In this document: piece after piece, positions 21,465-45,594 of the stretch
Position numbering within the stretch: the stretch's first letter is position 1
Layout of the letters: every line of letters starts with the position of its first letter
Origin: Desulfuromonas sp.
Lineage (GTDB): Bacteria; Desulfobacterota; Desulfuromonadia; Desulfuromonadales; Geothermobacteraceae
Reading direction: 5' to 3'
DNA: 59,217 nt
Assembly (NCBI GenBank): GCA_002868905.1
Contig: PKUA01000033.1
Coordinates: 1-59,217, forward strand
The notes under the pieces: model-generated
The model's database searches: none
What the model was told of the DNA's origin: nothing
What the model saw: the letters and a program-made list of their open reading frames with translations, nothing else
Position numbers and translations under genes: made by a program

Positions 21465-21554
<90 letters not shown>

Positions 21555-21642
21555 TTTATTCTCCTGTTCCTTTTCCAGGAGAGGAACTGATCGCGGAGTT
21601 GCAATGCCGGCTCCGCATTTGCTGTTGTTCTTTGGCGAGCCC

Positions 21643-21774
21643 ATTGCCGTCAGGAGTGACAGCCGGGTCCCGCGCAACGGCCGGCTGCAAACCCCGTCAG
21701 GCCCGGAAGGGAGCAGCGGTAGCGGCTTTCGTCGTGTGCCGCGGGGGTGCCTGGCTGTCACTCGTGGCGGCAAT
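21643..21774 (+). ncRNA. ffs: signal recognition particle RNA, small bacterial type
   Basis: The apical domain GTCAGGCCCGGAAGGGAGCA with the GGAA tetraloop and the Ffh-binding internal loop is unmistakable. The long basal helix is visible: GAGTGACAGCC (from 21654) pairs with GGCTGTCACTC (to 21763), and ATTGCCG/CGGCAAT extend it outward to 21643 and 21774, probably including unprocessed ends. Mature ends are therefore uncertain by about 10 bases. It is between tRNA-Ser and dnaX, the usual arrangement in related genomes. Confidence 0.93.
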
Positions 21775-29263: not shown

Positions 29264-29851
29264 ATGTCGTTCATTAACTACGCATCCCGCGAAATCAACT
29301 GCAAGATCGTCTATTACGGTCCGGGGCTCTGCGGCAAGACAACCAATCTGCAGTATATCTACCAGAAGACCGATCCGACCGCCAAAGGGAAGATGATCTC
29401 CCTGGCAACCGAGACGGAGCGGACCCTGTTCTTTGACTTTCTGCCGCTGGCGCTGGGAGAGATCCGCGGGTTTAAGACCCGTTTCCATCTCTATACCGTT
29501 CCGGGGCAGGTCTTCTACGATGCATCGCGCAAGTTGATTCTTAAAGGGGTCGATGGCGTGGTCTTCGTGGCGGATTCTCAGGAGGAACGCCTCGACGCTA
29601 ACATCGAATCCCTGGAGAATCTCAAGGACAATCTCGAGGAGCAGGGGTACCGGCTTGAGGATTTGCCGTTTGTCATGCAGTACAACAAGCGGGATTTGCC
29701 AAATGTCTCCTCGATGGAAGAGCTCCGCGAACTGCTCAATCCGGACGGGGTCCCGGAATACGAGGCATGTGCCACCACCGGCGAAGGGGTGTTCGAAACC
29801 GTCAAGGCGGTCGCCAAACTGATTCTGCTCGAGTTGAAGAAAGGCGGCTAA
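29264..29851 (+). CDS. mglA: MglA-like Ras-type GTPase
   Basis: A 195-aa small GTPase. The P-loop GPGLCGKT (residues 19-26) and the guanine-specificity motif NKRD in QYNKRDLP are clear; switch 2 is VPGQV, with Gln following the Pro-Gly as in MglA (DTAGQ is replaced). It forms a pair with MglB 14 bases upstream. In non-gliding relatives it is thought to place type IV pili and signalling proteins at cell poles; that role is inferred here. Confidence 0.93.
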
Positions 29852-29857
29852 AAACCC

Positions 29858-29886
29858 TTGACAAGGGGCGGCCTTTCGACTAAATT
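29858..29886 (+). promoter_or_regulatory. promoter ahead of the broken tRNA-Asn
   Basis: TTGACA, 17 bases, TAAATT, ending 19 bases before the tRNA 5' half. This is a good stable-RNA promoter left driving a fragment. Confidence 0.7.
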
Positions 29887-29905
29887 TCCGTTTCGTTATT
29901 CTCAA

Positions 29906-29929
29906 TCCCCGATAGTTCAGTTGGTAGGG
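29906..29929 (+). pseudogene. 5' half of a disrupted tRNA-Asn gene
   Basis: TCCCCGATAGTTCAGTTGG plus TAGGG is a tRNA acceptor 5' strand and D-arm. It then breaks off into a T run (29930-29937). Its acceptor strand TCCCCGA pairs perfectly with TCGGGGA of the 3' half at 30370-30376, so both pieces appear to come from one gene. The stretch from 29938 (GGCCCGGGGAG...) may hold another shred of tRNA 3' sequence. Confidence 0.65.
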
Positions 29930-29987
29930 TTTTTTTTGGCCCGGGGAGTTCACTGCATATGTAAATGTTTGATTTTGCAGGGTAATA

Positions 29988-30016
29988 AAACCAGTAAATT
30001 TACTGGTTTGGTTTTT
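29988..30016 (+). terminator. 22-bp palindrome with T run
   Basis: A loopless perfect palindrome (AAACCAGTAAA followed by its complement) at 29988-30009, then GG and five T. It probably terminates transcription from the promoter at 29858. Confidence 0.55.
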
Positions 30017-30024
30017 GCTGAAAC

Positions 30025-30053
30025 TTGACTTATAACGGGGAATAGAGTATTAA
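30025..30053 (+). promoter_or_regulatory. promoter of intact tRNA-Asn
   Basis: TTGACT, 17 bases, TATTAA, 23 bases before the tRNA. Confidence 0.7.
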
Positions 30054-30076
30054 TATCTCCGTTTCTAGCCATACAT

Positions 30077-30152
30077 TCCACCTTAGCTCAGTTGGTAGAG
30101 CAGGCGACTGTTAATCGCCTTGTCGCTGGTTCGAGCCCAGCAGGTGGAGCCA
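30077..30152 (+). tRNA. tRNA-Asn (anticodon GTT)
   Basis: A 76-base tRNA. Acceptor TCCACCT/AGGTGGA, discriminator G, encoded CCA. Anticodon stem GGCGA/TCGCC encloses CTGTTAA, giving GTT. T-arm GCTGG-TTCGAGC-CCAGC. It is intact and has its own promoter and terminator. Confidence 0.97.
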
Positions 30153-30157
30153 ATTTG

Positions 30158-30197
30158 GAAAAGCCCACGAATTATTTCGTGGGCTTTTCTTTTTGGG
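30158..30197 (+). terminator. terminator of tRNA-Asn
   Basis: GAAAAGCCCACGAA, four-base loop (TTAT), perfect complement, then TTTTT shortly after. The following stretch 30198-30331 shows no gene. Confidence 0.9.
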
Positions 30198-30331
30198 GGT
30201 CGGACGCCGCTGGGCAAGGATGTAGCTTTTGACCTTATGAAAGCGGTTGTCGGTGCTGCGACGGCCGAAAGCAGTGTCTCACATCCCTAGCCTGAAAACC
30301 TTTCTGGGACAACTATTGAGATTGTGGACAT

Positions 30332-30380
30332 GTGGCTGTTAACCACCCTGTCGCTGGTTCGAGTTCGGCTCGGGGAACCA
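30332..30380 (+). pseudogene. 3' half of a disrupted tRNA-Asn gene
   Basis: It starts at an anticodon arm (GTGG-CTGTTAA-CCAC, anticodon GTT) and runs through variable loop, T-arm (GCTGGTTCGAGTTCGGC, two G-U pairs) and acceptor strand TCGGGGA, A, CCA. The D-arm and 5' acceptor are missing here but are found 400 bases upstream at 29906. The intact tRNA-Asn lies between the halves. Confidence 0.7.
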
Positions 30381-30420
30381 ACAAAATAGAGGGCCTACGG
30401 TTTTGACCGTAGGCCCTTTT
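30371..30420 (+). repeat. direct repeat copy A (tRNA 3' end plus terminator)
   Basis: These 50 bases match 39309-39358 at 45 positions without gaps. They cover the last bases of the tRNA 3' half, a spacer and a complete terminator (GGGCCTACGGT-TTTG-ACCGTAGGCCC-TTTT). This looks like one edge (att-type repeat) of an inserted segment. The rest of the segment contains no integrase. Confidence 0.7.
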
Positions 30421-30421
30421 T
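30391..30421 (+). terminator. original terminator of the broken tRNA-Asn
   Basis: An 11-bp perfect stem, TTTG loop, then five T. Confidence 0.85.
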
Positions 30422-30471
30422 GTCTGTGCGCTGAGAAGGTGCCAAGAAAATTGTTTTTTTTGAGAGATATT

Positions 30472-30648
30472 TTATGCCGGTGTCCAGTAACAGCGCTTTG
30501 GCGAAACGATCTTTTCTTCCTTTTTCAGTTGAGCCATTGCCTTGTCTACGGCCTTGCGATCAAGCCCGCCAAGTTCAGCAATTTTCCCGGCGTTAAGCGG
30601 CGCCCCTTCGGCGCGCATGACTTCAAGAACCATTTCAGTAATATCCAT
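30472..30648 (-). CDS. mini winged-helix protein (58 aa)
   Basis: Below the usual length cut-off. Reads [20 protein letters not shown], continues with a helix-turn-helix ([20 protein letters not shown]) and [18 protein letters not shown] at the end. GGAAGAG precedes the ATG. The pattern (helices, recognition helix, beta-wing with aromatic end) is that of a lone winged-helix domain. It follows the PNPOx-like gene by 39 bases on the same strand. I believe similar small proteins occur widely in Desulfuromonadia; function unknown. Confidence 0.75.
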
Positions 30649-30687
30649 GTCTCTTCCTTTGGCAAAGCACTTCTTTTAAAGATTTCT

Positions 30688-31059
30688 TTACCAGGTTTGG
30701 GTCGCGGAATCGATGGTGACGGCGAGCGTTGCCCTTAACCAGGTAAACTTTTCCTTCAGGATATCGTAATCAGGCCCGGACGTTACAAATTCGGCCTTCC
30801 CTTTGATCAAAAACCCTGCCCCTGCTCCATGCAGGCCCTTAACTTTGCTGCTCGCAGTTGTGATGACAACCTCGGGGTTAAGTTTGATGTTTTCTTCGGT
30901 CTTATGCATATAGCCAGCGGGGATCAGGAAGCGTTCTTCCGATGAAATCTTGACGTAGCTATTCCAGGTATTGACCATATGGATGCCATCATCCCCCAGC
31001 GTCGCAATCGAAACGATCCCGTCATTTTTAAGAATCTCAAGCAGTTTTTCAGAAATCAT
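30688..31059 (-). CDS. FMN-binding split-barrel protein (pyridoxamine 5'-phosphate oxidase-like)
   Basis: A 123-aa protein starting MISEKLLEIL at ATG 31059, with AGGAG in front; the longer open frame to 31176 reaches into the regulator's promoter. The fold is indicated by SIATLGDDGIHMVNTWN, then RFLIPAGYMHKTEENIKLNP and GFLIKGKAEF. These are small flavin (or heme) binding proteins of mostly unknown activity. It is divergent from a MocR-type regulator, which probably controls it. Confidence 0.8.
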   Translation of the reverse strand: MISEKLLEILKNDGIVSIATLGDDGIHMVNTWNSYVKISSEERFLIPAGYMHKTEENIKLNPEVVITTASSKVKGLHGAGAGFLIKGKAEFVTSGPDYDILKEKFTWLRATLAVTIDSATQTW

Positions 31060-31179
31060 AACGCGGGCTCCTGGTTTGAAAGGTTTGTTATCAAAGATGA
31101 TTGAAGGATACTTGATCACTGACCCCTTCAAAAGGTACAATCTCCAAAAAAACAATGGGGACAGAATGCCTGACATTCA

Positions 31180-32574
31180 ATGATGTTTATATTAAACAAC
31201 ACCGATTCGACGCCGCTCTACCAGCAGCTTTTCCTGCAAATCCGAGAGAAGGTTCTTTCGGGGAAGTTCCCGGCGCATTTTAAGCTTCCCTCGATTCGTG
31301 ACTTGTCAGGCGAACTGGAAATCAGTCGAAATACGGTCGATGGCGCTTTCCAGGAGCTCTGCGCAGAGGGATATATCTACAGCAAGTCGCGGAGTGGTTA
31401 CTTTGTTTCAGATCTTGAGCTGGACCTTGCGACTTCGACAACCACGCCTTACCCGAAACAGGACCTCCATCCGAAGCTGGCGGAGCGTTATCGATTTGAC
31501 TTTCATCCGGCTCGACTCGATCCTGAGGTCTTCCCCGCGGCACTTTGGAAGAAATGCTTTACTGATTGTTTTCGCTCCGAACCAGGTGCTTTCTCGGAGT
31601 ACAGTGACCCACAGGGGGAGTGGGGTTTGAGATGCAATGTCCAGTTTTACCTGGAGCGGTCTCGCGGGGTACGCTGTAGCCCGGATCAAATAATTATCAA
31701 TTCAGGATCGCAACAGAACCTGGAGATTGTTGCCCAGCTTATTCGTGAGACGCACAATTCCGTTGCGGTTGAAAATCCCGGATACCACCTGCCCCGGGAT
31801 GTCTTCCGAAATCTCGGGTTCAGAATCAATCCCATAGATATCGGTTCCTCCAGCCTCAATCCGGACGCCCTTAAATCGAGCGAGAGTAGTGTTGTCTACA
31901 TAACGCCTTCACACCAGATGCCGCTCGGTTACGTGATGCCTGTCGCCGATCGCCTGAAGCTCATTTCGTGGGCCGATACAGGTGGGAGGTTAATTATCGA
32001 GGATGATTACGACAGTGAACTGCGCTATGTCGGGCGGCCCATATCGTCTTTGCAGGGTCTGAATCCACAGGGGAACATCATCTATCAAGGCACCTTCTCC
32101 AAGGTTTTCTCACCGGCTCTACGTTTATGCTACATGGTTCTTCCAACTTGGCTGGCAGATGCTTACAGACAGAAGTTCATGAATTATCTGTGCCCGGTGC
32201 CGCTTTTGACGCAAAGAGCGATGATCGCTTTCATGGAGCAGGGTCACTGGGAGCAGCATTTGAGACGTGTGCGGATATTTTACAAGAAGAAGCATGATTT
32301 GATGCTGCACACAATCGAGCAGAGGCTCTTGAACAAGGCCAAAATCATAGGCCAGGGTGCTGGCCTTCATCTCGTTCTGGAATTGAACGATAGGATTCAA
32401 GACGAAGCGGAATTTGTTGAACGAGCAAAGCAGCATGGGTGCCGGTTGCTGCCTTTTTCAGCATTTTATGCGGATGGAAGAAAGGAGCAGAATAAGTTGC
32501 TGCTCGGGTTTGGTGGAATCCCCTTAGGCGAAATCCCGGCGGGGGTGGATCTGCTTTCCGGTCTTCTTGAGTGA
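31180..32574 (+). CDS. MocR-type regulator: GntR helix-turn-helix fused to an aminotransferase domain
   Basis: A 464-aa chimeric regulator. The N-terminal GntR winged helix spans about residues 8-78 (PLYQQLFLQIREKVLSG, LPSIRDLS, SRNTVDGAF). A linker is followed by a fold-type I aminotransferase domain, with the PLP lysine in GTFSKVFSPALRL and IIEDDYDSELRY. Members such as PdxR use PLP as a ligand. The divergent PNPOx-like gene 120 bases away is the likely target. A downstream ATG just after the first is an alternative start. Confidence 0.9.
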   Translation: MMFILNNTDSTPLYQQLFLQIREKVLSGKFPAHFKLPSIRDLSGELEISRNTVDGAFQELCAEGYIYSKSRSGYFVSDLELDLATSTTTPYPKQDLHPKLAERYRFDFHPARLDPEVFPAALWKKCFTDCFRSEPGAFSEYSDPQGEWGLRCNVQFYLERSRGVRCSPDQIIINSGSQQNLEIVAQLIRETHNSVAVENPGYHLPRDVFRNLGFRINPIDIGSSSLNPDALKSSESSVVYITPSHQMPLGYVMPVADRLKLISWADTGGRLIIEDDYDSELRYVGRPISSLQGLNPQGNIIYQGTFSKVFSPALRLCYMVLPTWLADAYRQKFMNYLCPVPLLTQRAMIAFMEQGHWEQHLRRVRIFYKKKHDLMLHTIEQRLLNKAKIIGQGAGLHLVLELNDRIQDEAEFVERAKQHGCRLLPFSAFYADGRKEQNKLLLGFGGIPLGEIPAGVDLLSGLLE

Positions 32575-32601
32575 CAAGGTTTCCTCCTCGTTCCCAACAC
32601 T

Positions 32602-32617
32602 GTCCGGTTCGGGGAGC
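32602..32617 (+). repeat. third copy of the tRNA-Asn 3' core
   Basis: GTCCGGTTCGGGGAGC resembles the tRNA-Asn T-arm/acceptor 3' strand and the cores of the repeats at 30371 and 39309, but the terminator part is absent. The rest of 32575-32852 is AT-rich and shows no gene. Confidence 0.4.
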
Positions 32618-32852
32618 AAGAAAAACTCGAGCACCTGAATTGAAAATCCGTATTTGTCACGGATTACGAGAGAAAATCTCCAATCTGACCTCGCATGTAT
32701 TTACAGACGCGACAGTCTGCTCGGATCGGCATTTTTGTGGACCTAAGCTCTGGTTCGACCACTTTGTAATTTTTTTTTGTTACTTCAACCCTCCATTTTT
32801 TTGACAAGCTCATGCCATAGAACTCGTGAAATTTTTTTTGAAATCTTTAAAC

Positions 32853-33749
32853 TCAAATTAAGATATAGAGTAAAGGCAAGGATATAAATGCTAGAGCCAT
32901 TCCTAAACTTACCATTGCCGCTGCAAGTTCTGGAACCATGCCTGCTGCAATAGCTAAAGCTCCAGCAGTCACCATGGGTGGCATCCCCGCTTCGAAGATT
33001 GAGATATCAGCCGCCAAGTTTGATAGCCCCAGAACGCGACACCCGGCCAAAGCAACCAGTGGACCGATAGCTAGTTTTATCGCTAAACCATATACCAATG
33101 GTTGAAGTATCGTAGGACTTAGTCTGATTTTCAATTGGAAACCAATCGCTGTCATTACCAGAGGGGTTAACATTCCTGCCAGGGTCTCAAGTCCCTTGGT
33201 GACAGCCTCAGGGTAGGGCCAGTTTCGAAGCAGCAAGCCTATCAGGAGGGCCATAGTGGGTGGAAAAAACAAGGCCCGTTTGGCTACTTCAGCAATTTTG
33301 ATAGTCCCCGCCCGGCCGTAAAGCGCTAGGACGACAGACCCGTAGATGGCAAAAATAAGCATAGTGCCGATCTGGTCATAAATGATCAGGTAAGGGATGC
33401 CTGCTTCGCCAAAAAATGCATTGACCATTGGAACGCCCATAAATGAAGTGTTGCCGATAGGCACGACGAGAAGCAAAACCCCGATTGTCTCTCTTGACCA
33501 GGAAAACCTCTTGCCAATAATCAAAACCAAAGTTGCAGAAAGGGCAAGCATCGACCAGGGGACAATCGCTGGAACGATCATTTCTCCGGAGAACTCCAGT
33601 TGTGGAACTTTGAGCAAAATGACGGCAGGAAGGGCAACGTATAGCGCGAACATGTTGAGGACTTGTGCCGTCTGATCCGGAAAGGCCTCTATCTTGCGAA
33701 ATAGTGCCCCAAGTCCAACAAAGAGGGCAATCAAAACGAAATTTTCCAT
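32853..33749 (-). CDS. AEC-family permease (auxin efflux carrier type)
   Basis: A 298-aa inner-membrane protein with about ten helices in two five-helix halves, the pattern of the AEC family. Family-like segments include FALYVALPAVILL, GNTSFMGVPM and EAGMPPMVTAG. Bacterial members export or import organic acids such as malate; the substrate here is unknown. The start has only a weak ribosome binding site. Its own promoter lies upstream. Confidence 0.88.
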   Translation of the reverse strand: MENFVLIALFVGLGALFRKIEAFPDQTAQVLNMFALYVALPAVILLKVPQLEFSGEMIVPAIVPWSMLALSATLVLIIGKRFSWSRETIGVLLLVVPIGNTSFMGVPMVNAFFGEAGIPYLIIYDQIGTMLIFAIYGSVVLALYGRAGTIKIAEVAKRALFFPPTMALLIGLLLRNWPYPEAVTKGLETLAGMLTPLVMTAIGFQLKIRLSPTILQPLVYGLAIKLAIGPLVALAGCRVLGLSNLAADISIFEAGMPPMVTAGALAIAAGMVPELAAAMVSLGMALAFISLPLLYILI

Positions 33750-33820
33750 AGAATTCCAGACTTTTTAGAAACACTTGGGTGAGTTTGGATGCATGTAAAG
33801 GCAATTTTTTGAGGCTTGTT

Positions 33821-33849
33821 TGTATACACGTGGATTTGCGCTGGTGCAA
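33821..33849 (-). promoter_or_regulatory. promoter of the AEC permease gene
   Basis: On the minus strand TTGCAC, 17 bases, TATACA, about 72 bases before the start codon. The remaining 33850-34142 holds no gene that I can support. Confidence 0.6.
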
Positions 33850-34142
33850 GATTTTTTATGTATGGCATCCTGATTTGTTTTGTATAATATTGGCGATTTC
33901 CATGTCGCAATTTCTGATTAATGTGGTGAAATCTCCCTTTTCTAGAAGAAATTTCTAAGGTCCTTAGGGGTCACGAATTGTGAAATTCTTGAATTGATAG
34001 GATTTGTTGGTGCAGCTTTGAATAAAGAGTTGAACCAGGTTGCCCAGGGGTTCATGTGATTGAATGGATCCTCGGTGAGGTGCGTCGGGCTCCATTTTTC
34101 TCTGGAGGAATGGGGCATGAGTCAAATAGAAATACTTTGAAT

Positions 34143-35024
34143 TTACCTTACAATTGCGAATCCGATACGGACCGCTTGAACACGCTCTTCGTAATTTAAC
34201 AGGCTTTCGGATCGAACATTGGAATACTCCACCTGCAGGTAGAGGTCAAAGTTGCCCCCTGTCAGATTCGAAACCGGGTAGGTTAGGTCGGAGATGAAGG
34301 AAATACCTTTTTTTGCCATTCTGATATTCGACGTAAAAACAAAACCATCTGCTTTGCCAAGTTTGGTTTCAAGGTCAAAATAGCCTCGATAGTCTGACAA
34401 ATCGGCGTTGCTCTCACCGTCATTGTTGATATAAAGAAAAACTCTGGGACTTAACTGAAGTCCAAGTTTAGTGACAGGGTTGTATTGAATGAAGTAGGGC
34501 TTTAAATAGAAAAAATTGGTACTTCTGCTATGCTGCTCTCCTCTGCCGTTGGACTCGTGCTGCAAACCGAATTGAAAAAACAAACCTTCAAACTTTGGAA
34601 GGTAACGATTGAGATTGCTCGTCAGGAAAAAGAATTCAGGCTTGTAACTTGTGTCTGAAAAAGGGGCGGAGTCTGATTTTAAATCCCAAAATGATGTCTG
34701 CGTGTAGGCAAGATGAATGCCTGCAAGCCAAGGGTGTCGTACATTTAGAGAGCCTTTTGGATTGAAAAGTCGATATTTCATGCTGAGCTGAAACTTGCTT
34801 TCTTTGGGGTCAGCACCAACAAGGAAATAGATTGGTTCATACGCTGAAATGTTTGCAAGGTAGGGCTGGTAAAGAGAAAATAAATCACTGAGATCACTAT
34901 AATTTGAGAGGGGAGATTCTGGTCCCTCCCCGGGATAGGTTTTCAATGGTTCGGACTGACAAGGGTAAATGCCAAACCAAAATATACTTGAGACCGTCAA
35001 GCAAAGTTTAAACAACCAATTCAT
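34143..35024 (-). CDS. pldA: outer-membrane phospholipase A1 (OMPLA)
   Basis: A 293-aa outer-membrane beta-barrel enzyme that hydrolyses phospholipids reaching the outer leaflet. A signal peptide ends around residue 25 (YPCQS). The catalytic region is recognisable as LQHESNGRGEQHSRSTN with the His/Ser pair and the partner Asn, and the barrel motifs YTQTSFWDL and SYKPEFF are in place. ATG 35024 with AGGA upstream is preferred to the TTG at 35030. Lies alone, with gene-poor flanks (35025-35313 shows nothing). Confidence 0.88.
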   Translation of the reverse strand: MNWLFKLCLTVSSIFWFGIYPCQSEPLKTYPGEGPESPLSNYSDLSDLFSLYQPYLANISAYEPIYFLVGADPKESKFQLSMKYRLFNPKGSLNVRHPWLAGIHLAYTQTSFWDLKSDSAPFSDTSYKPEFFFLTSNLNRYLPKFEGLFFQFGLQHESNGRGEQHSRSTNFFYLKPYFIQYNPVTKLGLQLSPRVFLYINNDGESNADLSDYRGYFDLETKLGKADGFVFTSNIRMAKKGISFISDLTYPVSNLTGGNFDLYLQVEYSNVRSESLLNYEERVQAVRIGFAIVR

Positions 35025-35313
35025 CAGCAATCCTGTCTGGAAGGTATCAAAAAGATTGGGATGTTGTTGTTCCTTTAAGCCGATGAGTGTTTTTGAATGG
35101 CAACTTTTTAGAAGTCCTTTAATTTGAGCCTGAATTCCATGTGCAGCTATTATCGCCCCTGAACCACGTCGAAAATTTAATAATCTGAGTCTGATCGGAT
35201 GGCGAAGCTAGATCTGGTTCGATTTCATAATCATGTCTGAGTAGGCCCTTCGAAAATGGAAATCTCTGTTCGGTTTGCGAAGAATGCGAGAATTTTAATC
35301 CGTTTCAGCTCAA

Positions 35314-36153
35314 TTACACCTGCACGCCCGCTTTAGGCATTTCATGCAAATGCACATCCCGTTGCGGGAACGGGATAGTGAGGCCGGCCGCTTCGATTTT
35401 TTCCTTGATGACCTTGTTGTGCTCCCAGATCACATCCCAGTAATCATCTACGCTGGCCCAAGCGCGTAGTTGCAGATTCACTGAACTGTCACCCAGCGTT
35501 TGTACCATGATCTTGGGTGCCGGTTCTTTATGAAAACGGCTTTCGGCCTCAATAATCCCCTTAAGGACCTCGAAGCCTCTATCGATTGAATCCCCATAGG
35601 AAATCCCCACGACCAAATCCATACGTCGTTTACCATTGCATGTAAAGTTTTTGATCGGAACTCCCCACAAAGTGCTATTCGGCATTGACAGGAAAAGGCC
35701 GTCAATCGTTTCAAGGATCGTGGTGAACAGGCCGATTTCCTTGACCGTGCCACTGTAAGAACCGCATTCGATAAAATGGTTGACCTTGAATGGACGCAGG
35801 ATCAAGAGCATGATACCTGCGGCAATATTGCTCAATGTGTCTTTCAGTGCCAGGCCGACCGCCAGACCGGCTGCTCCGAGGAGGGCGATAATGCTGTTGG
35901 TATTGACTCCGAAAATGTCGAGAACAATGACCAGGCCAATTGCGTAAACAGAATAGCTGCCTATGGCACCGAGGACCGGTGCCATAGTCTCGTCAAGACT
36001 TTCGATTTTAAAGTTGGCTCGTTGAATCGATTTTCGGACAAGTTTGGCAGCAAGGCGGCTGGCGAAAAAAACGGCCAGAGCGAGAAAAAGTTGGTAGCCA
36101 ACTGAAATGATTTTGACCGAGTTACTAGCCCAGAATTGGTCCAATTGTTCCAT
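35314..36153 (-). CDS. mscS: MscS-family mechanosensitive channel
   Basis: A 279-aa small-conductance channel with three N-terminal helices (about 17-33, 62-83 and 88-115). The pore helix GAAGLAVGLALKDTLSNIAAG has the Ala/Gly packing pattern, and the C-terminal beta/alpha vestibule domain includes VGISYGDSI and FPQRDVHL. It releases solutes on osmotic downshock. The zntB-like gene lies 24 bases upstream on the same strand, so both may be co-transcribed. Confidence 0.93.
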   Translation of the reverse strand: MEQLDQFWASNSVKIISVGYQLFLALAVFFASRLAAKLVRKSIQRANFKIESLDETMAPVLGAIGSYSVYAIGLVIVLDIFGVNTNSIIALLGAAGLAVGLALKDTLSNIAAGIMLLILRPFKVNHFIECGSYSGTVKEIGLFTTILETIDGLFLSMPNSTLWGVPIKNFTCNGKRRMDLVVGISYGDSIDRGFEVLKGIIEAESRFHKEPAPKIMVQTLGDSSVNLQLRAWASVDDYWDVIWEHNKVIKEKIEAAGLTIPFPQRDVHLHEMPKAGVQV

Positions 36154-36177
36154 GGTTAATCCTTTTGTTCGAAAAAA

Positions 36178-37149
36178 TTAAATCCAACGGATACGCCGGA
36201 ATATCAGAAATTGCAGGATAGCGATACCGGTCAGAAACGAACAGACAAAAAGAAAGGCGTGGGGGTTTTCGGTGCCTGGAATTCCCCCGACGTTGATTCC
36301 CAAAAGGCCAGTAAAAAGTCCAAGTGGTAGAAAAATGGCTGTCACAATAGAAAGCAGATACATGGTTTGGTTCATGCGGCTGGCCATTTGACTCTCAAGT
36401 TCGTCTTGAACTACCGCTGTTCTTTCCCTGGCGGCGTTGAGGTCCTCAACGTACCGTGTCAAACGGTCAGATGTTTCCCGCAGGATGGCCTGGTCGGCAG
36501 GAGTGATCCAGGCAATTTTTTCAATTTGAATTCGTTCGAAGACGTCCTTTTGAGGGATGAGATATCGCCGCAAACCAATTATTTGTCGGCGCAGTTCGCT
36601 GATAACCGTACGCAGTGGCTTGTCTTGCTGTCCAAAAACCAGTTCTTCAAGCTCATCGACCCGCTCAGACAGGTTGTCGAGGGATTCTGCCATGCGCAAT
36701 GAGAGTTTTCGGGTCAACTGCGCCAGAAAATCTCCTTCTGTTTTGGGGCCCTCTCCGTTCAATATCTCCATGCGAAGATCGTCTACAGCCATCACTTTTC
36801 GGTGTCGCATGGAAATTATCCGTCCTGGTTCGATCCACACTCTGAGTGAAACCATATCGTCCGGCTCTGAGCCCGGGTTGAGATTGATACCTCTCATAAT
36901 GATAAGAAGCCCGGGCCCATGAATAAAGAAGCGAGGCCGTGTGTCTTCTGCCAAAAGTGCTTCGAGAACCGATGTGTCCAAGCGGCTTTTCAGGTGCAGC
37001 CAGCGGTGACTCTCTTTAGATTTGTAGTCCAGGTGTATCCAGAGCAATCCATCCTCTGTGTGCCATTTGTTTATGTCATTCCAGCCCTCTTCAATGGGTT
37101 TTTCATGACCAGTCATCCGAATTGCCGAAATCAAACCGACTTGATTCAT
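36178..37149 (-). CDS. zntB: CorA-superfamily cation transporter, ZntB type
   Basis: A 323-aa protein with a large cytoplasmic domain, a long coiled helix (residues 140-255) and two C-terminal helices. The first helix ends in GLLGINVGGIPG; the GIN form with downstream GGIP is that of ZntB rather than the GMN of CorA. ZntB moves zinc with protons. AAAGGGAGATGG gives a strong ribosome binding site. Likely first gene of a two-gene unit with mscS. Confidence 0.9.
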   Translation of the reverse strand: MNQVGLISAIRMTGHEKPIEEGWNDINKWHTEDGLLWIHLDYKSKESHRWLHLKSRLDTSVLEALLAEDTRPRFFIHGPGLLIIMRGINLNPGSEPDDMVSLRVWIEPGRIISMRHRKVMAVDDLRMEILNGEGPKTEGDFLAQLTRKLSLRMAESLDNLSERVDELEELVFGQQDKPLRTVISELRRQIIGLRRYLIPQKDVFERIQIEKIAWITPADQAILRETSDRLTRYVEDLNAARERTAVVQDELESQMASRMNQTMYLLSIVTAIFLPLGLFTGLLGINVGGIPGTENPHAFLFVCSFLTGIAILQFLIFRRIRWI

Positions 37150-37371
37150 GTTCCATCTCCCTTTTTAGGAAAATCTATTTAACAAGTACCACCGTGACTA
37201 GGTTATTGAATTATTCACAAGAAATAAATTTGACCGTGATCTCCATATCAGTTAATCAATTTTCGGCAATGTTGTTTCATGGATTTTTCGCTAAGAAACA
37301 TATTCAAGCCCCGATCACCATCACAGCTTTTGTAGTATATTGCCTATTTATGTCTGACTGAAGATGCCATA

Positions 37372-37830
37372 TCAATTTTCATTTGAGTGGTTTCGGCCTT
37401 CTGTTGACTGGACAATGCGCGCCTCTCTCTGATACATCATGATTGAGCCTAACCTCAATATCGTTAGTACCAGCAATAGAAGACTGATTGCGTAAATCTC
37501 GCTTTCGCTTGCTTTGTGTTGAAATAGCATGATCATGACCTCCCTCACAATAAAAACAATGGCTGCATCCACAATAAAAGTCATTCTTAATCGGTTTGCG
37601 TGGAAATATTCAACGAGAGATTTGGACAATTCGACCAGAACAAAGAGTGTGAGAACATCAGTGATTAGGTTTAGATATTTTCCCGTTATTCCCGGGACAG
37701 TGATGGTATGCCATATCCCGAGAAAGAGTTTCCCGCACCCAATGACCAAGGCGACAATAAGAGCAAAAAGAATTGCTGAAAAAATCAGCCTGACAACGCG
37801 ATTGAACAGATTATTTATACTTATCTCCAT
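37372..37830 (-). CDS. PsiE-family membrane protein
   Basis: A 152-aa protein with four membrane helices (about 14-36, 52-75, 83-103 and 112-135). It matches the phosphate-starvation-inducible PsiE family (LVELSKSLVEYFHANRLRMTFIVDAAIVFIVREVMIML). Function unknown in all bacteria. ATG 37830 has GGGGGCAGG ahead; the frame extends further upstream to 37890. The region 37831-38181 contains no clear gene or known riboswitch. Confidence 0.8.
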   Translation of the reverse strand: MEISINNLFNRVVRLIFSAILFALIVALVIGCGKLFLGIWHTITVPGITGKYLNLITDVLTLFVLVELSKSLVEYFHANRLRMTFIVDAAIVFIVREVMIMLFQHKASESEIYAISLLLLVLTILRLGSIMMYQREARIVQSTEGRNHSNEN

Positions 37831-38181
37831 GGCCTGCCCCCATTTTGGTGTTTTATTCAAGATTTTTAACCAAGTAAAGTTATATAGCAAAATAAAATTA
37901 CTAAAATTTCCGCCTCTTCATTTCGCCCTGTAGAGGGTATGTCCCGGAGGTGAAAATACGAGAGCGGCCCGGGAAAATTGGTTTTTGGTGCAATTGGGTA
38001 GGAGAAGACAGCGGAACAGTCTCACTAAGGATCTCCCTGGGATATCTTTCCTGCACGCAATTTAAAATGATATAAAGTTAATTTGCTGGCGTGTTCCAAA
38101 AGGAGTGTGTCGGCTGGAACGCATGCCAGCGATAGCTGTTGGTGCGCATTACAATTTTCCTTCAAGGGACTTATATTTCAC

Positions 38182-39150
38182 ATGGTGCTGCCCTTTGTCG
38201 CAATTGCAATCGGGTTGGCGGTTCTGGTATGGAGCGCAGACCGTTTCGTCGAAGGTTCCGCCTCTGCCGCCCGCCATTTTGGGATGCCGCCGCTGCTGAT
38301 CGGTATGGTGATCGTCGGCTTCGGGACCTCCACACCGGAGATGGTGGTTTCGGTGCTGGCCGCTTCGCAGCACAATCCTGGAATCGCACTGGGTAACGCC
38401 TACGGTTCCAATATCTCCAATATCGCCCTAATCCTCGGGGTCACTGCGCTCATTAGTCCCATCACTGTTCATTCGCAGGTGCTCCGCAAGGAGCTGCCGA
38501 TTCTCACGGTTGTTACTGCGATTGCCGCATGGCAGATTTGGGATGGCAAAATTACCCGGCTTGATGCCATCGTGTTGCTGGCCGTGTTCAGCGGCTTGAT
38601 GACCTGGACCATCTGGCATGGGCTCAGGAAAAAAGAGGATACGCTGGGAAGCGAGATGGAACAGAAGCTGGAAGTCCGCGTCATGCCCATTCGCCGTGCT
38701 CTCTTCTGGTTAGGGGTGGGACTGGTGCTGCTTATTGCCAGTTCCCGCGTTCTGGTCTGGGGCGCGGTTGAGATCGCGCATGGGTTCGGGGTCAGCGACC
38801 TGATTGTCGGCCTGACCATCGTCGCAGTCGGCACCTCGCTGCCGGAACTGGCCTCCTCTATCATTGCCGCCCGCAAGGGGGAACATGACATTGCCCTGGG
38901 CAACGTCCTTGGTTCCAATCTCTTCAACACATTGGCTGTGGTCGGTATCGCCGGAGCGATTCATCCACTGGCGGTCGGGCCGGAAGTCTTCAACCGTGAC
39001 ATGCTGGTGATGGTCTCTCTGACACTGTCACTTTTCTTGGTCGGTTACGGATTCCGGGGGGCTGGCCGCATCAACCGCATCGAGGGTGGGGTGTTGCTAG
39101 CCTGCTACATAGGCTATACGTTCTATCTGGTCAATATGGTATTCGCTTAA
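38182..39150 (+). CDS. calcium/sodium antiporter, CaCA family (YrbG-like)
   Basis: A 322-aa membrane exchanger with two inverted repeats. Both alpha-repeat motifs are visible: VGFGTSTPEMVVS...GNAYGSNISNIALILG in the first half, and VAVGTSLPELASS...GNVLGSNLFNTLAVVG in the second. The chain fits ten helices. Start taken at ATG 38182 because the signature first helix begins there; the open frame upstream adds 33 hydrophilic residues. Confidence 0.92.
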   Translation: MVLPFVAIAIGLAVLVWSADRFVEGSASAARHFGMPPLLIGMVIVGFGTSTPEMVVSVLAASQHNPGIALGNAYGSNISNIALILGVTALISPITVHSQVLRKELPILTVVTAIAAWQIWDGKITRLDAIVLLAVFSGLMTWTIWHGLRKKEDTLGSEMEQKLEVRVMPIRRALFWLGVGLVLLIASSRVLVWGAVEIAHGFGVSDLIVGLTIVAVGTSLPELASSIIAARKGEHDIALGNVLGSNLFNTLAVVGIAGAIHPLAVGPEVFNRDMLVMVSLTLSLFLVGYGFRGAGRINRIEGGVLLACYIGYTFYLVNMVFA

Positions 39151-39308
39151 AAGCATAGTCAATTCGGGTTGCCTATTGTGATGTTCGAAGCGCTCAAACC
39201 ACCCCTTCTGAACCATAAAAACCTCCCGGAAGCTATTTCGGAAAGCTGGCCTAGATGCCTAGGGTACACAATTTATGATTTCTTCCCAGTGCCCACGACC
39301 GTCCGTCT

Positions 39309-39358
39309 CGGGGAGCCAAAAAAATAGAGGGCCTGCAGTTTTGACCGTAGGTCCTTTT
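39309..39358 (+). repeat. direct repeat copy B (decayed tRNA 3' end plus terminator)
   Basis: Matches copy A (30371-30420) at 45 of 50 positions. TCGGGGA-G-CCA still reads as a tRNA end, and the preceding GTCCG recalls the T-arm. In the terminator stem three changes weaken pairing. This is probably the other boundary of the segment inserted at tRNA-Asn. No further gene lies in 39151-39483. Confidence 0.65.
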
Positions 39359-39483
39359 CTTTTTTGCACCCTCTTTCCCTAAGGTCTTCCCAGCAACACA
39401 ACAGGACCAAAGCATTCTACGACCCATAGGTTGGATGTTAAGGATAAACATTCCTACCCCTTTCCCGAAGCAGTGAGGGGTGA

Positions 39484-41325
39484 TTAAAGCCCATACAGTA
39501 ACGGTAGAACCCAGGACAAGGTTCCCCAGAGAATCAACACCAATGGGATGCCAATGCGAAGAAAGTCATTAAAGGTGTATTCACCGGCATTCATGACGAG
39601 GAGATTTGTTTTGTAGGCCATTGGTGTGGCAAAGCTCATGTTGGACCCGAAAAGTACCGCTAGGACAAAGGGCTCGGCAGGTTGGCCCATCTGGGCTGCA
39701 ATTGAAATGGCGATGGGGGTGCCCATGACTGCTGTGGCGTTATTGGAGACGGCGTTGGTCAAAATTGCCATCAACAGCATTAAACCGCTAAGCATGACTG
39801 TTGGTGAAGCGTTCCCCGAAAGGCTAAGGAAAATTTGTGCAAGATAGTCGGCTCCCCCTGTTTTCAATAACGCCGAGCCAAGCGCCAAGCTCGCCACAAC
39901 GATCATGACCACCTGGGTACTTAAGGCTTTAGTTGCGTCGCTCCAGCTTAGGGCCCCGCTGAGGATCATGATCAGCGCACCGCATGATGCGCTGATCGAG
40001 ATCGGCAGCCAACCGAAGGCTGCCGTGAGTATGATCGCCAGCATGATCAGCAGGGCAAGGGGGGCTTTCTGGGTGAAGGGGAGATCAACGGTGGCATCGA
40101 GCACCAGGAGGTCCTTCTCTTTTTTCAGGTTGGCAATCTGTTCTCTCGGCCCCTGGACCAGCAGGATATCTCCGGCTTGCATGCGGATGTCACTGATTGA
40201 ATCGAACCCTTTTTGTATCCGTTTGCCAGCCCTGTGAATGGCTAGAATGATGGTTCCGTAACGATCCGAAAAACGTATTTCGTTGAAGGTTCTTCCCCGC
40301 AGGGAAGAGCCTTGAATGACGGCTATTTCGGCAATCTGCTGGTCCTCTGCTTTAAGAGGGTGATCATCATCCACGGGGCTGCCGAGGTTTTCGTCCTGAT
40401 AAAGGGTGCCTTCTAACACCGCTTCGATCTCTTTTAGCCCTTCCGGGGTGTCGCGAATCATCAGTTGATCACCGATTTTCAGGACAACGCTTGGGAGTGG
40501 CATGATGTGTTTTTCATTGTCGCGCCTGATACTCTTGACTTTCAGCTTTCCATCCATCTTCTGGATTGCCTCTCCAAGAGTTTTCCCGACAATAGAGCTC
40601 TTTTCCAGGATTGCCAGGTGTGCGGAAAAAACCCTTGGCGAAGTGTCTGCCAGTGCCAGTTTTCGTTCCGGTATAATCCGAGGTGCAATCAACCAAAGAT
40701 AGGCAATGCCAACCCCCCCGGCAATAATGGCTGGGACGAGAAAATCAAACATTCCCATCCGTTTAAGCCCCATGTCCGTCGCAACGGAGACAACCAGGAG
40801 ATTCGTTGATGTACCGATGGTGGTGCAGGTCCCGCCCAATAGAGTCGCAAATCCCATTGGCATCAGCACTTTAGAGGCTTTGGTCTTGGTCCTGATTGAG
40901 ACACTGATCAGGATCGGAAGGAGCAGGACAACAACGGGAACGTTATTGATAAAGGCGCTGATGAAAGCTGCAACCAGAAGGGTGAGCAGTAAGGAAACTC
41001 CCGGGCTGATTTTCCATAAGCGGGCGAGCCCCCTCCCGACAGGTTCAAGTGCACCGGTGCGGACAACACCCTGACCGGCAATCATCAGGGCACAAACCGT
41101 CACCAATGCTTCATGTCCAAAACCATGGAAAAAATTTTCCGCATGAAGAAATTCGCCATCGATCTGAAAGGGAATGAGCGTAAAGCCAACGGTTAGAGAA
41201 ATCAGGACTATAAAGCTTGCTGTCTCCAGGGGAAGATTTTTCCTGGTAAACAGATACATGGCGAAAACGGCGAGAAGGAGGACTGCCGTGGCATGAGGGT
41301 TCGGAGGCAGAGGAAGGCTGAGCAT
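39484..41325 (-). CDS. SLC13-family permease with two TrkA-C (RCK) domains
   Basis: A 613-aa permease. About twelve helices in two blocks (1-205 and 400-613) surround two RCK_C domains (roughly 205-295 and 300-385). The helix-loop motif LLGGTCTTIGTSTNLLVVS and its counterpart near SNNATAVMGTPIAIS are typical of the DASS/SLC13 family. Substrate may be sulfate, a dicarboxylate or another anion. GGAG precedes the ATG. 41326-41642, which must hold its promoter, shows no gene. Confidence 0.88.
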   Translation of the reverse strand: MLSLPLPPNPHATAVLLLAVFAMYLFTRKNLPLETASFIVLISLTVGFTLIPFQIDGEFLHAENFFHGFGHEALVTVCALMIAGQGVVRTGALEPVGRGLARLWKISPGVSLLLTLLVAAFISAFINNVPVVVLLLPILISVSIRTKTKASKVLMPMGFATLLGGTCTTIGTSTNLLVVSVATDMGLKRMGMFDFLVPAIIAGGVGIAYLWLIAPRIIPERKLALADTSPRVFSAHLAILEKSSIVGKTLGEAIQKMDGKLKVKSIRRDNEKHIMPLPSVVLKIGDQLMIRDTPEGLKEIEAVLEGTLYQDENLGSPVDDDHPLKAEDQQIAEIAVIQGSSLRGRTFNEIRFSDRYGTIILAIHRAGKRIQKGFDSISDIRMQAGDILLVQGPREQIANLKKEKDLLVLDATVDLPFTQKAPLALLIMLAIILTAAFGWLPISISASCGALIMILSGALSWSDATKALSTQVVMIVVASLALGSALLKTGGADYLAQIFLSLSGNASPTVMLSGLMLLMAILTNAVSNNATAVMGTPIAISIAAQMGQPAEPFVLAVLFGSNMSFATPMAYKTNLLVMNAGEYTFNDFLRIGIPLVLILWGTLSWVLPLLYGL

Positions 41326-41642
41326 GCTATAGCTCCAAAAATCGTGGATTAAGGCTTACTTTACAGGGTTTGTAATAAATGTGCCACAAAACGCTTAAAA
41401 TCCAATTGCTCCGGTTTGATATTGTCTTTTTGTAGGGAAGTCACCCAGGCTGTCGGATAAAATTTCCAGCAGGTTGCGTCTTTGAAAGGCAGGAAAGATG
41501 TTTTTTATTTTATTTCCGGCACATGAAAAGTGTTGGTAAGAGTCTTGAAGTTTTCCAGTCTGGACGGAAAACGAAATCGGGGAGTTTTTAGAAAGCTATG
41601 TATCATTTTCAATTCCACGTTAGTCAATCTGAGAGAATATTT

Positions 41643-43028
41643 TTATCCCAATCTTGGAAGAATTGCACTGGCGAAACTCAGAACGAAGAAAAACCCACAC
41701 ATGTCTGTCACCGTGGTCAATAAAGGGCCCGAAACCAGTGCCGGGTCCATCTTGAATTTTTTTAAAAGCAGCGGCAGAAGACCGCCAAGGGTAACGGCAA
41801 CGATTGTATTTGCGGCAAGTGCACCACCTACTACCAAGCCAAGGAAGGGGTTTCCTTTCCACAAATAAGCCACACCACCCAGTAAAATTCCTAGTGCCAA
41901 ACCGTTGATTATGCCAAGTGTTGCCTCTTTTCGCATGACACGCAGTAGCTCATTTGGCCTTACCAAACCCAGAGAGAGTTCACGCATGCTGACGGCGACG
42001 GCCTGATTGCCGCTGCATCCACTCATGTCACTGACCATGGGCAAAAAGACCGCTAAAGTGATTGCTGCGGCCAAGGTGTCCTGATATAGGGCGATCACGC
42101 TGGCTGCAATAATATTGAGAATAATGTTTAAGCTTAACCAAGAGAGGCGACGCCCTGAACGGTTAAGCAACGGCATTGTACGGAACTCCTCTCCACCGAT
42201 AATACCGCTTAAACCTAAAAACTGCCTGACAGCGCTCTCTCTGCGCGCTTCTTCAACTGATTCGGGCAATACAACACCAAGCAGATGCCCAGCCTTGTCG
42301 ACGACAGGTGCACCGAAAAGGTCGTGGTCCTCAAAAAAATCTCGCAATTGATCGAGGCGGGTTTCAACCGCGAGTTTTAAGGGATTTCGAATCATGACGC
42401 TGTCCAAGGTTGCACTCCGCTTTGGAAATAGGAGGTCGTGCATGCGGAGTACGCCGGTCAAATGGTTTTCTTTGTCAGTTACATAGAAATACTGAACATG
42501 GTAATCCGCATAGGTTTGCCTGTTGTTTTGAAGGTCTTTAAGGACATCCAATATCGTCATGTCACCAGTAAAACTCAGGAATTCTGAGATCATAAGGCCG
42601 CCTGCGGTATCCGACGGGAAGGCCATAAATTGCCGAGCTTCCAGGGCATCCTCCGGGTCCATCTGCTCAAGAATCGCCTCGGCATCCTCGTCATCCATCT
42701 CGCTTAGTAGATCAACGAGATGGTCACTGTCTAGCTCCTCAAGAATTGCGGCGGCGTGTTTCGGAGGAAGATCATCTATAAGGTCCGCAGCTTGCAAATC
42801 TGAAATATCTTCGATGATCTCAGCAGCATCCGAGGGGGAGAGTAGCCGAAATAGACGGCTCTGATATTCTGAGCTGAGCCGAGAAATTGCTCTGGCCGTC
42901 TCGGTCGGGCTCATCTGGTCAATGTATTGAAACAACTGGTCTGCATCACCAGAATCGATCAACTCTTGTATGTTTTCCCAGGGATGTTCGAGCGACCCCG
43001 GTGAAGCACTGATTGGTGCAGTATTCAT
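41643..43028 (-). CDS. mgtE: magnesium transporter MgtE
   Basis: A 461-aa Mg2+ channel. The N-domain (residues 20-130) has the acidic repeats (AAEIIEDI, VDLLSEMDDEDAEAIL), two CBS domains follow (about 135-260), then five C-terminal helices with SGCSGNQAVAVSMREL and GGLLPLLLKK. The intracellular acidic domains gate the channel by Mg2+. I see no M-box type riboswitch in its leader. Confidence 0.95.
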   Translation of the reverse strand: MNTAPISASPGSLEHPWENIQELIDSGDADQLFQYIDQMSPTETARAISRLSSEYQSRLFRLLSPSDAAEIIEDISDLQAADLIDDLPPKHAAAILEELDSDHLVDLLSEMDDEDAEAILEQMDPEDALEARQFMAFPSDTAGGLMISEFLSFTGDMTILDVLKDLQNNRQTYADYHVQYFYVTDKENHLTGVLRMHDLLFPKRSATLDSVMIRNPLKLAVETRLDQLRDFFEDHDLFGAPVVDKAGHLLGVVLPESVEEARRESAVRQFLGLSGIIGGEEFRTMPLLNRSGRRLSWLSLNIILNIIAASVIALYQDTLAAAITLAVFLPMVSDMSGCSGNQAVAVSMRELSLGLVRPNELLRVMRKEATLGIINGLALGILLGGVAYLWKGNPFLGLVVGGALAANTIVAVTLGGLLPLLLKKFKMDPALVSGPLLTTVTDMCGFFFVLSFASAILPRLG

Positions 43029-43170
43029 AATTTATGATCTTTCATTGGGTATCAACTCTTGGGTTTTTGCAGCCTGTTGTAAATACACTATGCCGTATTG
43101 GTAAGTGGACAAGCAACCAATGGGATTTCACATATTACAGAGTTTGCAATTTCCTCTGTAATGGACAACT

Positions 43171-43290
43171 TTAAACTGCAGGGTCTCGGAAAATAGGACG
43201 TGGGTCCGCAAGAGTCGACACCGTGTTTATGATCAGCCCTCCGTCCTCAACGAGATTGACTACCTCATGACCGGCCAACTGCCGAATCAA
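43171..43290 (-). pseudogene. possible gene remnant (39 codons)
   Basis: A short minus-strand frame from TTG 43290, IRQLAGHEVVNLVEDGG then LIINTVSTLADPRPIFRDPAV, looks like real protein sequence rather than noise, but has no clear start signal and is preceded directly by a stop. It may be the C-terminal end of a lost gene. Family not recognised. Confidence 0.25.
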
Positions 43291-43301
43291 GGTCTAGGTG
43301 T

Positions 43302-44390: not shown

Positions 44391-44758
44391 GAAGACTTGT
44401 CTTTCTCTCTATCGTCCAGATGGCGGAACATGTCCGCCAGCAGGTGCTGAACGTGGTGGTCGGCAAGGGAGTAATAGACGATTTTGCCGACTTTGCGAAA
44501 GCGAACGATCCCCTTGGCGCGCAACAGGCGGAGTTGATGCGACATGGCCGAGGACGAGGTTTCGAGGAGGGCGGCGAGATCGCACACGCAAAGCTCCGTG
44601 GTGCCGAGGGCGAGCAGAATCCTCAAGCGCGAGGCATCTCCCAACAGGCTGAAAATGTCCGCTGATTCGGCGACGCGTCGACCCTCCGGCATGTTGAGCT
44701 TGGCCTGCTCGACCTGGTCCTGGTGAATGGCGCTAATTTGACAGGTATCGTTTTTCAT
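44387..44758 (-). CDS. ArsR/SmtB-family metal-sensing repressor
   Basis: A 123-aa winged-helix repressor. The metal box ELCVCD (C57, C59) lies on the helix before the recognition helix (SSSAMSHQLRLLR), as in ArsR/CadC; C6 and His residues at the start (CQISAIH) resemble the extra N-terminal ligands of CadC-like sensors. The ATG at 44758 has GAGGGTGG in front; the frame start at 44770 is less likely. It is expected to repress its own operon and release DNA on binding a thiophilic metal(loid). Confidence 0.9.
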   Translation of the reverse strand: MKNDTCQISAIHQDQVEQAKLNMPEGRRVAESADIFSLLGDASRLRILLALGTTELCVCDLAALLETSSSAMSHQLRLLRAKGIVRFRKVGKIVYYSLADHHVQHLLADMFRHLDDREKDKSS

Positions 44759-44770
44759 GTCCACCCTCAC

Positions 44771-45579: not shown

Positions 45580-45594
45580 TAGAAGGAGGAAGAA

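What the first reader, a model, noticed from the sequence alone, without database searches (positions are those of the whole stretch)
29858..30421. tRNA-Asn gene split in two around an intact tRNA-Asn gene
Seen: a tRNA 5' half (29906-29929) and a 3' half (30332-30380, anticodon GTT) have matching acceptor strands (TCCCCGA and TCGGGGA). About 400 bases lie between, holding a palindromic terminator, a new promoter, a complete tRNA-Asn(GTT) with different acceptor sequence, and its own terminator. The old gene still has a good promoter (29858) and terminator (30391). Inference: an insertion brought a replacement tRNA-Asn, so the cell could lose the original. A trans-joined or permuted tRNA is possible in principle, but no bacterial precedent makes it likely.
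Basis: partly seen in the sequence, partly recalled or inferred. Interest (0 to 1): 0.68.

Follow-up and report, generated by a model that had tools for sequence, protein, structure and literature searches.

The report
Transfer-RNA gene displaced by inserted substitute
In this bacterium the gene for the asparagine transfer RNA has been broken in two by about 400 bases of DNA that carry a different, complete asparagine transfer-RNA gene, so the newcomer has apparently taken over an essential job and the old gene is decaying; it looks like the end point of a known trick of some phages and mobile elements.

Summary
A tRNA-Asn(GTT) gene stands at its usual place after mglA but survives only as positions 1-22 (29906-29927) and 25-76 (30329-30380). 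About 400 bp lie between, with an intact tRNA-Asn of another sequence type (30077-30152), a promoter-like sequence and terminators. In two same-family relatives (G001, G002) the mglA-linked tRNA-Asn is whole, with the old acceptor sequence and no block. The inner gene is the only tRNA-Asn found in the held draft assembly. The old gene is a pseudogene: positions 11, 23, 24, 61 and 73 differ from all 33 distinct tRNA-Asn compared, so a working split tRNA is very unlikely. A second tRNA 3' end with terminator (39301-39367, 84% like 30363-30429) bounds an 8.9-kb low-GC segment: this tRNA was probably a landing site before. Best reading: DNA bearing a relative's tRNA-Asn entered the single-copy gene and replaced it, the fixed counterpart of 'tRNA-dependent lysogeny'. 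Direct insertion versus an element later trimmed by deletion is not resolved: no integrase in the window and no common core at the junctions. New variant of a known kind; modest interest.

The parts
29264..29851 (+). mglA-like small GTPase gene, a common upstream neighbour of tRNA-Asn in this order
   Evidence: ORF; tRNA-Asn downstream on the same strand, within 1.4 kb, in 26 of 110 loci with this gene, own locus included; upstream gene order shared with G001, G002 and G004. The name mglA is my assignment from recalled knowledge; no family search was run on this protein
29858..29886 (+). promoter-like site of the old tRNA-Asn (TTGACA-17-TAAATT)
   Evidence: consensus match only; number found is at chance level
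29906..29927 (+). 5' piece of the old tRNA-Asn, tRNA positions 1-22
29928..30328 (+). intervening block (about 400 bp), 46% G+C against 57% in the 29.85 kb upstream (G+C taken over 29929-30325)
   Evidence: outside tRNA and terminator no match in the held loci or in the listed matches
29988..30009 (+). terminator-like palindrome between the old 5' piece and the inner promoter
   Evidence: -13.0 kcal/mol, z -3.3, for 29980-30020
30025..30053 (+). possible promoter of the inner tRNA (TTGACT-17-TATTAA)
   Evidence: read by eye; not reported by the consensus scan
30077..30152 (+). intact tRNA-Asn(GTT) with acceptor TCCACCT/AGGTGGA, encoded CCA; the only tRNA-Asn found in the assembly
   Evidence: closest among held sequences 72/76 to G013's tRNA-Asn, which also follows mglA
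30157..30190 (+). terminator hairpin of the inner tRNA
   Evidence: -24.9 kcal/mol, z -9.5; not listed by the scan
30329..30380 (+). 3' piece of the old tRNA-Asn, positions 25-76, anticodon GTT, encoded CCA; C61 to T, G73 to A, pair 27-43 broken
30388..30419 (+). terminator of the old tRNA-Asn (within copy 1 of the 67-bp repeat, 30363-30429)
30430..39300 (.). 8.9-kb low-GC (47%) segment with PNPOx-like, GntR/aminotransferase regulator, Mem_trans permease, PLA1, MscS, CorA, PsiE and Na/Ca exchanger genes; no integrase; probable decayed genomic island
39301..39367 (+). second tRNA-Asn 3' end (positions 59-76, still with C61 and G73) plus terminator; 84% like 30363-30429 and 83% like G002's native tRNA 3' flank

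Best explanation
A single-copy tRNA-Asn gene at its ancestral place after mglA was broken near the D-arm by DNA carrying a complete tRNA-Asn gene of a type found elsewhere in the order. The newcomer supplies tRNA-Asn; the old gene is a decaying pseudogene that still has a promoter-like sequence and a terminator. Shown by sequence: the two nearly abutting pieces, the whole gene in two relatives, the inner tRNA as the only tRNA-Asn of the assembly, the loss of invariant positions. Inferred: inner promoter activity, that the substitute came with the disruption, and the vehicle. For the vehicle I think most likely (about 0.5) an integrative element that used this tRNA gene as its landing site, carried its own tRNA-Asn as in tRNA-dependent lysogeny, and was later deleted down to that tRNA; next (about 0.35) direct illegitimate insertion of a short fragment. 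An older island, ending at 39301-39367, probably used the same gene before, while it was still functional. The first two rivals below concern the vehicle and are not exclusive of this statement.
For: Whole tRNA-Asn of the old type after mglA in G001 and G002. Upstream synteny with G001, G002 and G004 runs through mglA and breaks after it. Joined pieces fold as canonical tRNA-Asn; best boundaries 22 and 25; no tRNA similarity beyond either break above background. Inner gene unique among 43 tRNA hits. In the visible part of the listing (46 of 136 genomes) 37 show a GTT hit, 35 of them exactly one, 9 none, so single copy is usual. Inner gene nearest to G013 (72/76) and 57/76 to the old gene. Old gene differs at positions 11, 23, 24, 61, 73 from 33 of 33 distinct tRNA-Asn, whereas the 39301 copy keeps C61 and G73, so that decay came after that duplication. 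Precedent: PMC10865867.
Against: No held genome of the same genus shows the empty site. The assembly is a draft: among its 43 tRNA hits no tRNA-Ile or tRNA-Glu was found, so an unassembled second tRNA-Asn cannot be excluded. Against an integrase-borne element: no Phage_integrase in the window (two in the assembly, on other contigs; serine recombinases were not searched for), and the junctions share no word longer than 4 bp, at the low end of 300 random pairs, where published cases have 8-17 bp. No viral contig holds the inner tRNA's first 40 bases exactly. Against one clean break in one gene: positions 22-27 right of the block match G002 at only 2 of 6, against 46 of 49 beyond. Against a chance insertion: a 400-bp fragment that happens to hold the needed isotype is improbable a priori.
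Confidence: 0.78

Rival explanations
1. The two pieces come from separate events. The right piece is the displaced 3' fragment left by an island that crossed over near the anticodon and first rebuilt the host tRNA; the left piece is that rebuilt tRNA after a later deletion took its 3' part and most of the island. They abut by coincidence, but a substitute tRNA-Asn is still there and the old gene is still lost.
For: Displaced 3' tRNA fragments are the normal mark of islands: 3760 of 3919 islands in Islander have one, and 2083 have an anticodon-centred site (PMC4383910, passages). The right piece is 46 of 49 identical to G002 from position 28 on but only 2 of 6 at positions 22-27. Another displaced 3' end lies at 39301, so tandem use of this site is plausible.
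Against: Left end at 22 and right start at 25 nearly abut, and bases 22-25 on the right side (GGAC) still pair with bases 10-13 of the left piece (GTTC). I estimate the pairing at about 1 in 32 by chance and the abutment at about 1 in 10 (own estimates, no call).
Confidence: 0.35
2. Direct illegitimate insertion: a short foreign DNA fragment with a complete tRNA-Asn unit was captured in the D-arm by end joining or micro-homology repair, with no mobile element.
For: Nearly abutting pieces; no integrase in the window, no common core, longest terminal inverted match 6 bp; the inner tRNA resembles tRNA-Asn of the order (91% over 95 bases to G013) more than the listed phage matches (at most 82%, 20 of 1876 records listed; 29 unlisted records have a best place of 90-95% identity).
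Against: It needs a random fragment of about 400 bp to hold just the isotype whose single gene it destroys.
Confidence: 0.35
3. The old gene is still functional as a split or trans-joined tRNA, or its block is removed like an intron.
For: Joined pieces fold as tRNA-Asn; acceptor strands pair fully; bases 11 and 24 changed together so that the D-stem still pairs; a promoter-like sequence and a terminator are present.
Against: Positions 61 and 73, invariant in 33 of 33 distinct tRNA-Asn compared, are changed and pair 27-43, formed in 33 of 33, is broken. The block holds terminators and another tRNA, its ends share at most 6 complementary bases, no intron family matches, and a complete tRNA-Asn makes it unnecessary. 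The split tRNAs in the passages that I saw of one review are archaeal (PMC4390854).
Confidence: 0.01
4. Assembly artefact: two tRNA regions joined wrongly.
For: Draft of 84 contigs; tRNA genes share short identical stretches.
Against: Apart from short tRNA-like and inverted-repeat matches the block is unique in the assembly, the left side carries the conserved mglA neighbour, and the right side carries a terminator homologous to G002's native one.
Confidence: 0.03

Closest known systems
tRNA-dependent lysogeny of actinobacteriophages (Fionnbharth, LeBron and others; PMC10865867: abstract and three sections read)
   Different: Here only about 400 bp remain, no integrase and no 8-17 bp common core is seen, the break lies near the D-arm whereas attB in the worked example overlaps the 3' half, the substitute resembles tRNA-Asn of the same bacterial order, and the old gene has begun to decay.
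tRNA-gene genomic islands with displaced 3' fragments (Islander; PMC4383910, abstract and passages seen)
   Same: tRNA 3' ends at 30329-30380 and 39301-39318 on the same strand bound an 8.9-kb low-GC segment.
   Different: No integrase; no rebuilt tRNA at the left end; the repeat runs about 50 bp past the tRNA through the terminator.
tRNA gene fragments from integrated elements (PMC9897764, abstract and one section read)
   Same: Non-canonical partial tRNA sequences beside a complete gene of the same isotype.
   Different: There the complete copy is the rebuilt target; here it is a gene of another sequence type.
Archaeal split tRNA genes (PMC4390854, passages seen)
   Same: 5' and 3' pieces of one tRNA stand apart in the genome.
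   Different: No complementary leaders, conserved positions lost, a complete substitute present, and the organism is a bacterium.

Membership tests
tRNA-dependent lysogeny / integration | host tRNA gene disrupted and not rebuilt | tested here: met
   neither piece is called a tRNA at the default threshold; that it was never rebuilt cannot be told
[quoted passage not shown]
   inner tRNA-Asn(GTT)
tRNA-dependent lysogeny / integration | tyrosine integrase in the element | tested here: not met
   PF00589 hits only on contigs C22 and C33, none in the window; none among the 20 window proteins scanned with Pfam
tRNA-dependent lysogeny / integration | short common core (8-17 bp) at both junctions | tested here: not met
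   longest shared word at the junctions 4 bp; a later deletion could have removed it
tRNA-dependent lysogeny / integration | host gene otherwise single-copy | tested here: inconclusive
   one tRNA-Asn in the assembly; 35 of the 37 shown relatives with a GTT hit have one (46 of 136 genomes visible); draft assembly
Integrative island in a tRNA gene (8.9-kb segment) | displaced tRNA 3' fragment at the far end, same strand | tested here: met
   39301-39367
Integrative island in a tRNA gene (8.9-kb segment) | integrase gene | tested here: not met
Split / trans-spliced tRNA | conserved tRNA positions kept in the joined molecule | tested here: not met
   61, 73 and pair 27-43 altered
Split / trans-spliced tRNA | complementary leader sequences next to the break | tested here: not met
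   at most 6 exactly complementary bases between the first and last 60 bases of the block
Split / trans-spliced tRNA | joined mature RNA in the cell | not testable with these tools
   no RNA data
Group I intron in a tRNA gene | intron RNA family match | tested here: not met
   no match at gathering level in the window, nor up to E 5 in 29800-30500

The most novel reading that the evidence does not exclude
A fixed, post-mobile end state of tRNA-dependent integration: an element landed in the single tRNA-Asn gene of a member of this order, its passenger tRNA became the cell's only tRNA-Asn, and the element then vanished, leaving an essential gene of the translation apparatus permanently displaced in place by a foreign copy. 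(Living cases outside Actinobacteria have been suggested in print; the scar without the element is the new part, so I set the interest at 0.5.)
Probability: 0.4. Interest if true: 0.5.

Novelty: new variant of a known kind. Interest (0 to 1): 0.38.

Why it matters
tRNA genes are favourite landing sites of mobile elements because the element usually rebuilds them. This locus looks like the rarer outcome, in which the target ends up broken and a passenger tRNA takes over for good. It would show one route by which an essential single-copy tRNA gene is swapped for a relative's version inside its own locus, and would carry the idea behind tRNA-dependent lysogeny from living phages to an old chromosomal scar. 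It also warns annotators: the remaining pieces look like a split tRNA but are a pseudogene.

Tried and rejected
Split tRNA, permuted tRNA or intron: rejected (lost invariant positions, no complementary leaders, no intron family).

Right piece as a full-length tRNA with a decayed 5' half, or left piece with a decayed 3' half still next to it: rejected, since the flanking bases score no better than random window stretches (2785 of 5000 and 4468 of 4934 score at least as well). CGGGGAG at 29942, which looks like an acceptor strand, is a common word in the window (22 occurrences on both strands).

Origin of the block: in 136 order genomes the listed matches fall on the tRNA and its near flanks (5 candidates per genome scored, list cut). 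The listed phage and plasmid matches to the block do so too (20 of 1876 and 20 of 1096 records listed). The right part gave only a weak 26-bp plasmid match, E 0.1, and was not run against phages; the left part gave none in phages and was not run against plasmids. The inner tRNA's first 40 bases: no exact match in viral contigs. mglA in viral contigs: no relative.

Similar halves elsewhere: scanning up to 2.5 kb after mglA in 110 loci (some short, some records probably present twice) gave orphan 5' motifs in the own locus, L071 and L074 (L074 with 4 mismatches, taken as chance) and an orphan 3' motif only in the own locus. Ten further regions, chosen mostly for a long mglA-tRNA distance or a possible second copy, showed none.

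Literature: nine searches found the precedent for replacement but, in the titles and abstracts listed, no report of this locus or of a bacterial tRNA gene split around a substitute tRNA; the library lacks most subscription journals. Williams 2002 (integrase sublocations) is not held and is known to me only through citations.

Full report
What is there. The window is C28 of a 3.3-Mb draft genome in 84 contigs. At 29264-29851 lies an mglA-like GTPase gene (my naming, from recalled knowledge). A common downstream neighbour of this gene is tRNA-Asn(GTT): 26 of 110 loci with the gene, own locus included, have one on the same strand within about 1.4 kb (many of the other loci are cut short by contig ends or lie outside the order, and some records are probably present twice). 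Upstream gene order, window 21.4-29.85 kb, is shared with same-family genomes G001, G002 and G004; G003 has it in pieces, and the gene itself was not found there.

The old gene. After mglA come a promoter-like sequence (29858-29886; such matches are at chance level) and TCCCCGATAGTTCAGTTGGTAG, tRNA positions 1-22. Positions 25-76 follow only at 30329-30380, then a strong terminator. The boundaries come from a column-wise likelihood against 16 tRNA-Asn sequences with a TCCCCG acceptor: best left end 22, best right start 25. Joined without the block the pieces make a canonical tRNA-Asn by ARAGORN, 68/76 identical to G002 and 66/76 to G001. In those two genomes the gene is whole, after mglA (838 and 115 bp away), with the same acceptor stem. 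So the old gene is the ancestral one.

The inner gene. 30077-30152 is an intact tRNA-Asn with acceptor TCCACCT/AGGTGGA, a cloverleaf as its lowest-energy fold, and its own terminator. A promoter-like sequence at 30025-30053 is read by eye and was not found by the consensus scan. The gene is 57/76 identical to the old gene and, among the sequences held, nearest (72/76) to the tRNA-Asn of G013, from another family of the order, where it also follows mglA. It is the only tRNA-Asn among the 43 tRNA hits of the assembly. Caveat: no tRNA-Ile or tRNA-Glu was found either, so the draft is not complete for tRNAs. Single copy is usual: of the 46 genomes visible in the listing (136 searched), 37 show a GTT hit, 35 of these exactly one, and 9 show none; the two with two copies (G069, G078) are listed with 7% and 5% contamination.

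The old gene is dead. Among 33 distinct tRNA-Asn in all loci held (own inner gene left out), base 11 is C, 23 A, 24 G, 61 C and 73 G in every one, and pair 27-43 forms in every one (one of the 33 has A13, so the D-stem as a whole is not invariant). The old gene has T11, G23, A24, T61 and A73, and its 27-43 pair is T-C. Bases 11 and 24 changed together so that the D-stem still pairs, which is weak evidence that the two pieces were once one molecule. On the other side, positions 22-27 right of the block match G002 at only 2 of 6, against 46 of 49 from 28 on, which would also fit a fragment that begins near the anticodon stem.

The wider locus. A 67-bp repeat of the tRNA 3' end plus terminator lies at 30363-30429 and again at 39301-39367, 84% identical, start to start 8,938 bp apart. 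G002's native tRNA 3' flank is 83% identical to the 39301 copy. That copy keeps C61 and G73, so these two losses in the old gene came after the duplication. The segment between is 47% G+C against 57% upstream and holds transporter, channel, phospholipase and regulator genes but no integrase. In the four held same-family genomes the matches listed for 30381-48000 are few and, apart from the tRNA 3' end itself, none lies on the mglA contig (at most 40 candidates per genome were scored). I read the segment as a decayed island that used the same tRNA gene earlier; without an integrase this stays an inference. After the tRNA, G001 and G002 share nothing with each other on the same strand in the 3.5 and 2.1 kb compared, as expected of a variable site.

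How it works. Most likely, DNA with a self-contained tRNA-Asn unit entered the single tRNA-Asn gene; cells survived because the newcomer supplied the tRNA; the old gene then drifted. Vehicle: an element of the kind that practises tRNA-dependent lysogeny, later lost by deletion (about 0.5), or a directly captured fragment (about 0.35). The first is favoured by the built-in isotype match, by published precedent and by the sign of earlier use of the site. It is weakened by the absence of an integrase in the window and of a shared core longer than 4 bp at the junctions; published cores are 8-17 bp (PMC10865867, Table 2). Outside its tRNA and terminator the block has no match in the loci held or among the listed matches in 136 order genomes (capped).

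Compared with what is known. [quoted passage not shown] PMC12429752 (passages) says that its group had described the mechanism for prophages similar to a Mesorhizobium phage, and that the prophages studied there rebuild the tRNA. Islander (PMC4383910, abstract and passages) and PMC9897764 (abstract and one section) describe displaced tRNA fragments as ordinary marks of integration. This locus works like the first and carries marks of the second, but as two defining features of an integrase-borne element were tested and not met, I do not file it as a member. It is a new variant of a known kind, of modest interest.

Noticed in passing
L071:4658-4740 (Desulfuromonadaceae BB27, JADGED010000139.1): Second truncated tRNA-Asn after mglA: positions 1-31 run straight into GCGCAAATAAAATC and a terminator that resemble a native tRNA 3' flank, as if about 40 nt were deleted; no intact tRNA-Asn was seen in the held part of that genome. 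Real loss or MAG assembly error.
   Followed up: partly
window 47406-47498: A stretch of about 90 bp with 17 listed copies, 78-85% identical, elsewhere in the same assembly, plus an inverted match to itself, and not listed in same-family relatives (capped scoring): an interspersed repeat of unknown kind.
   Followed up: no
L010 and L011, downstream of mglA (G002, G004): Near relatives also have extra or rearranged DNA between mglA and tRNA-Asn: 838 bp in G002, and in G004 what looks like an IS21-type transposase pair (my reading of the sequence, no family search), with its tRNA-Asn match on another contig.
   Followed up: partly
loci L051, L054, L056, L058-L061, L065, L069, L070, L075, L080: In 12 of 110 mglA loci (three titled Geobacter or Geobacteraceae) the tRNA after mglA is tRNA-Ser(GCT), in one case followed by tRNA-Arg and tRNA-SeC, instead of tRNA-Asn.
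   Followed up: no
window 21465-21759: tRNA-Ser(GGA) followed by the small SRP RNA gene; ordinary.
   Followed up: no
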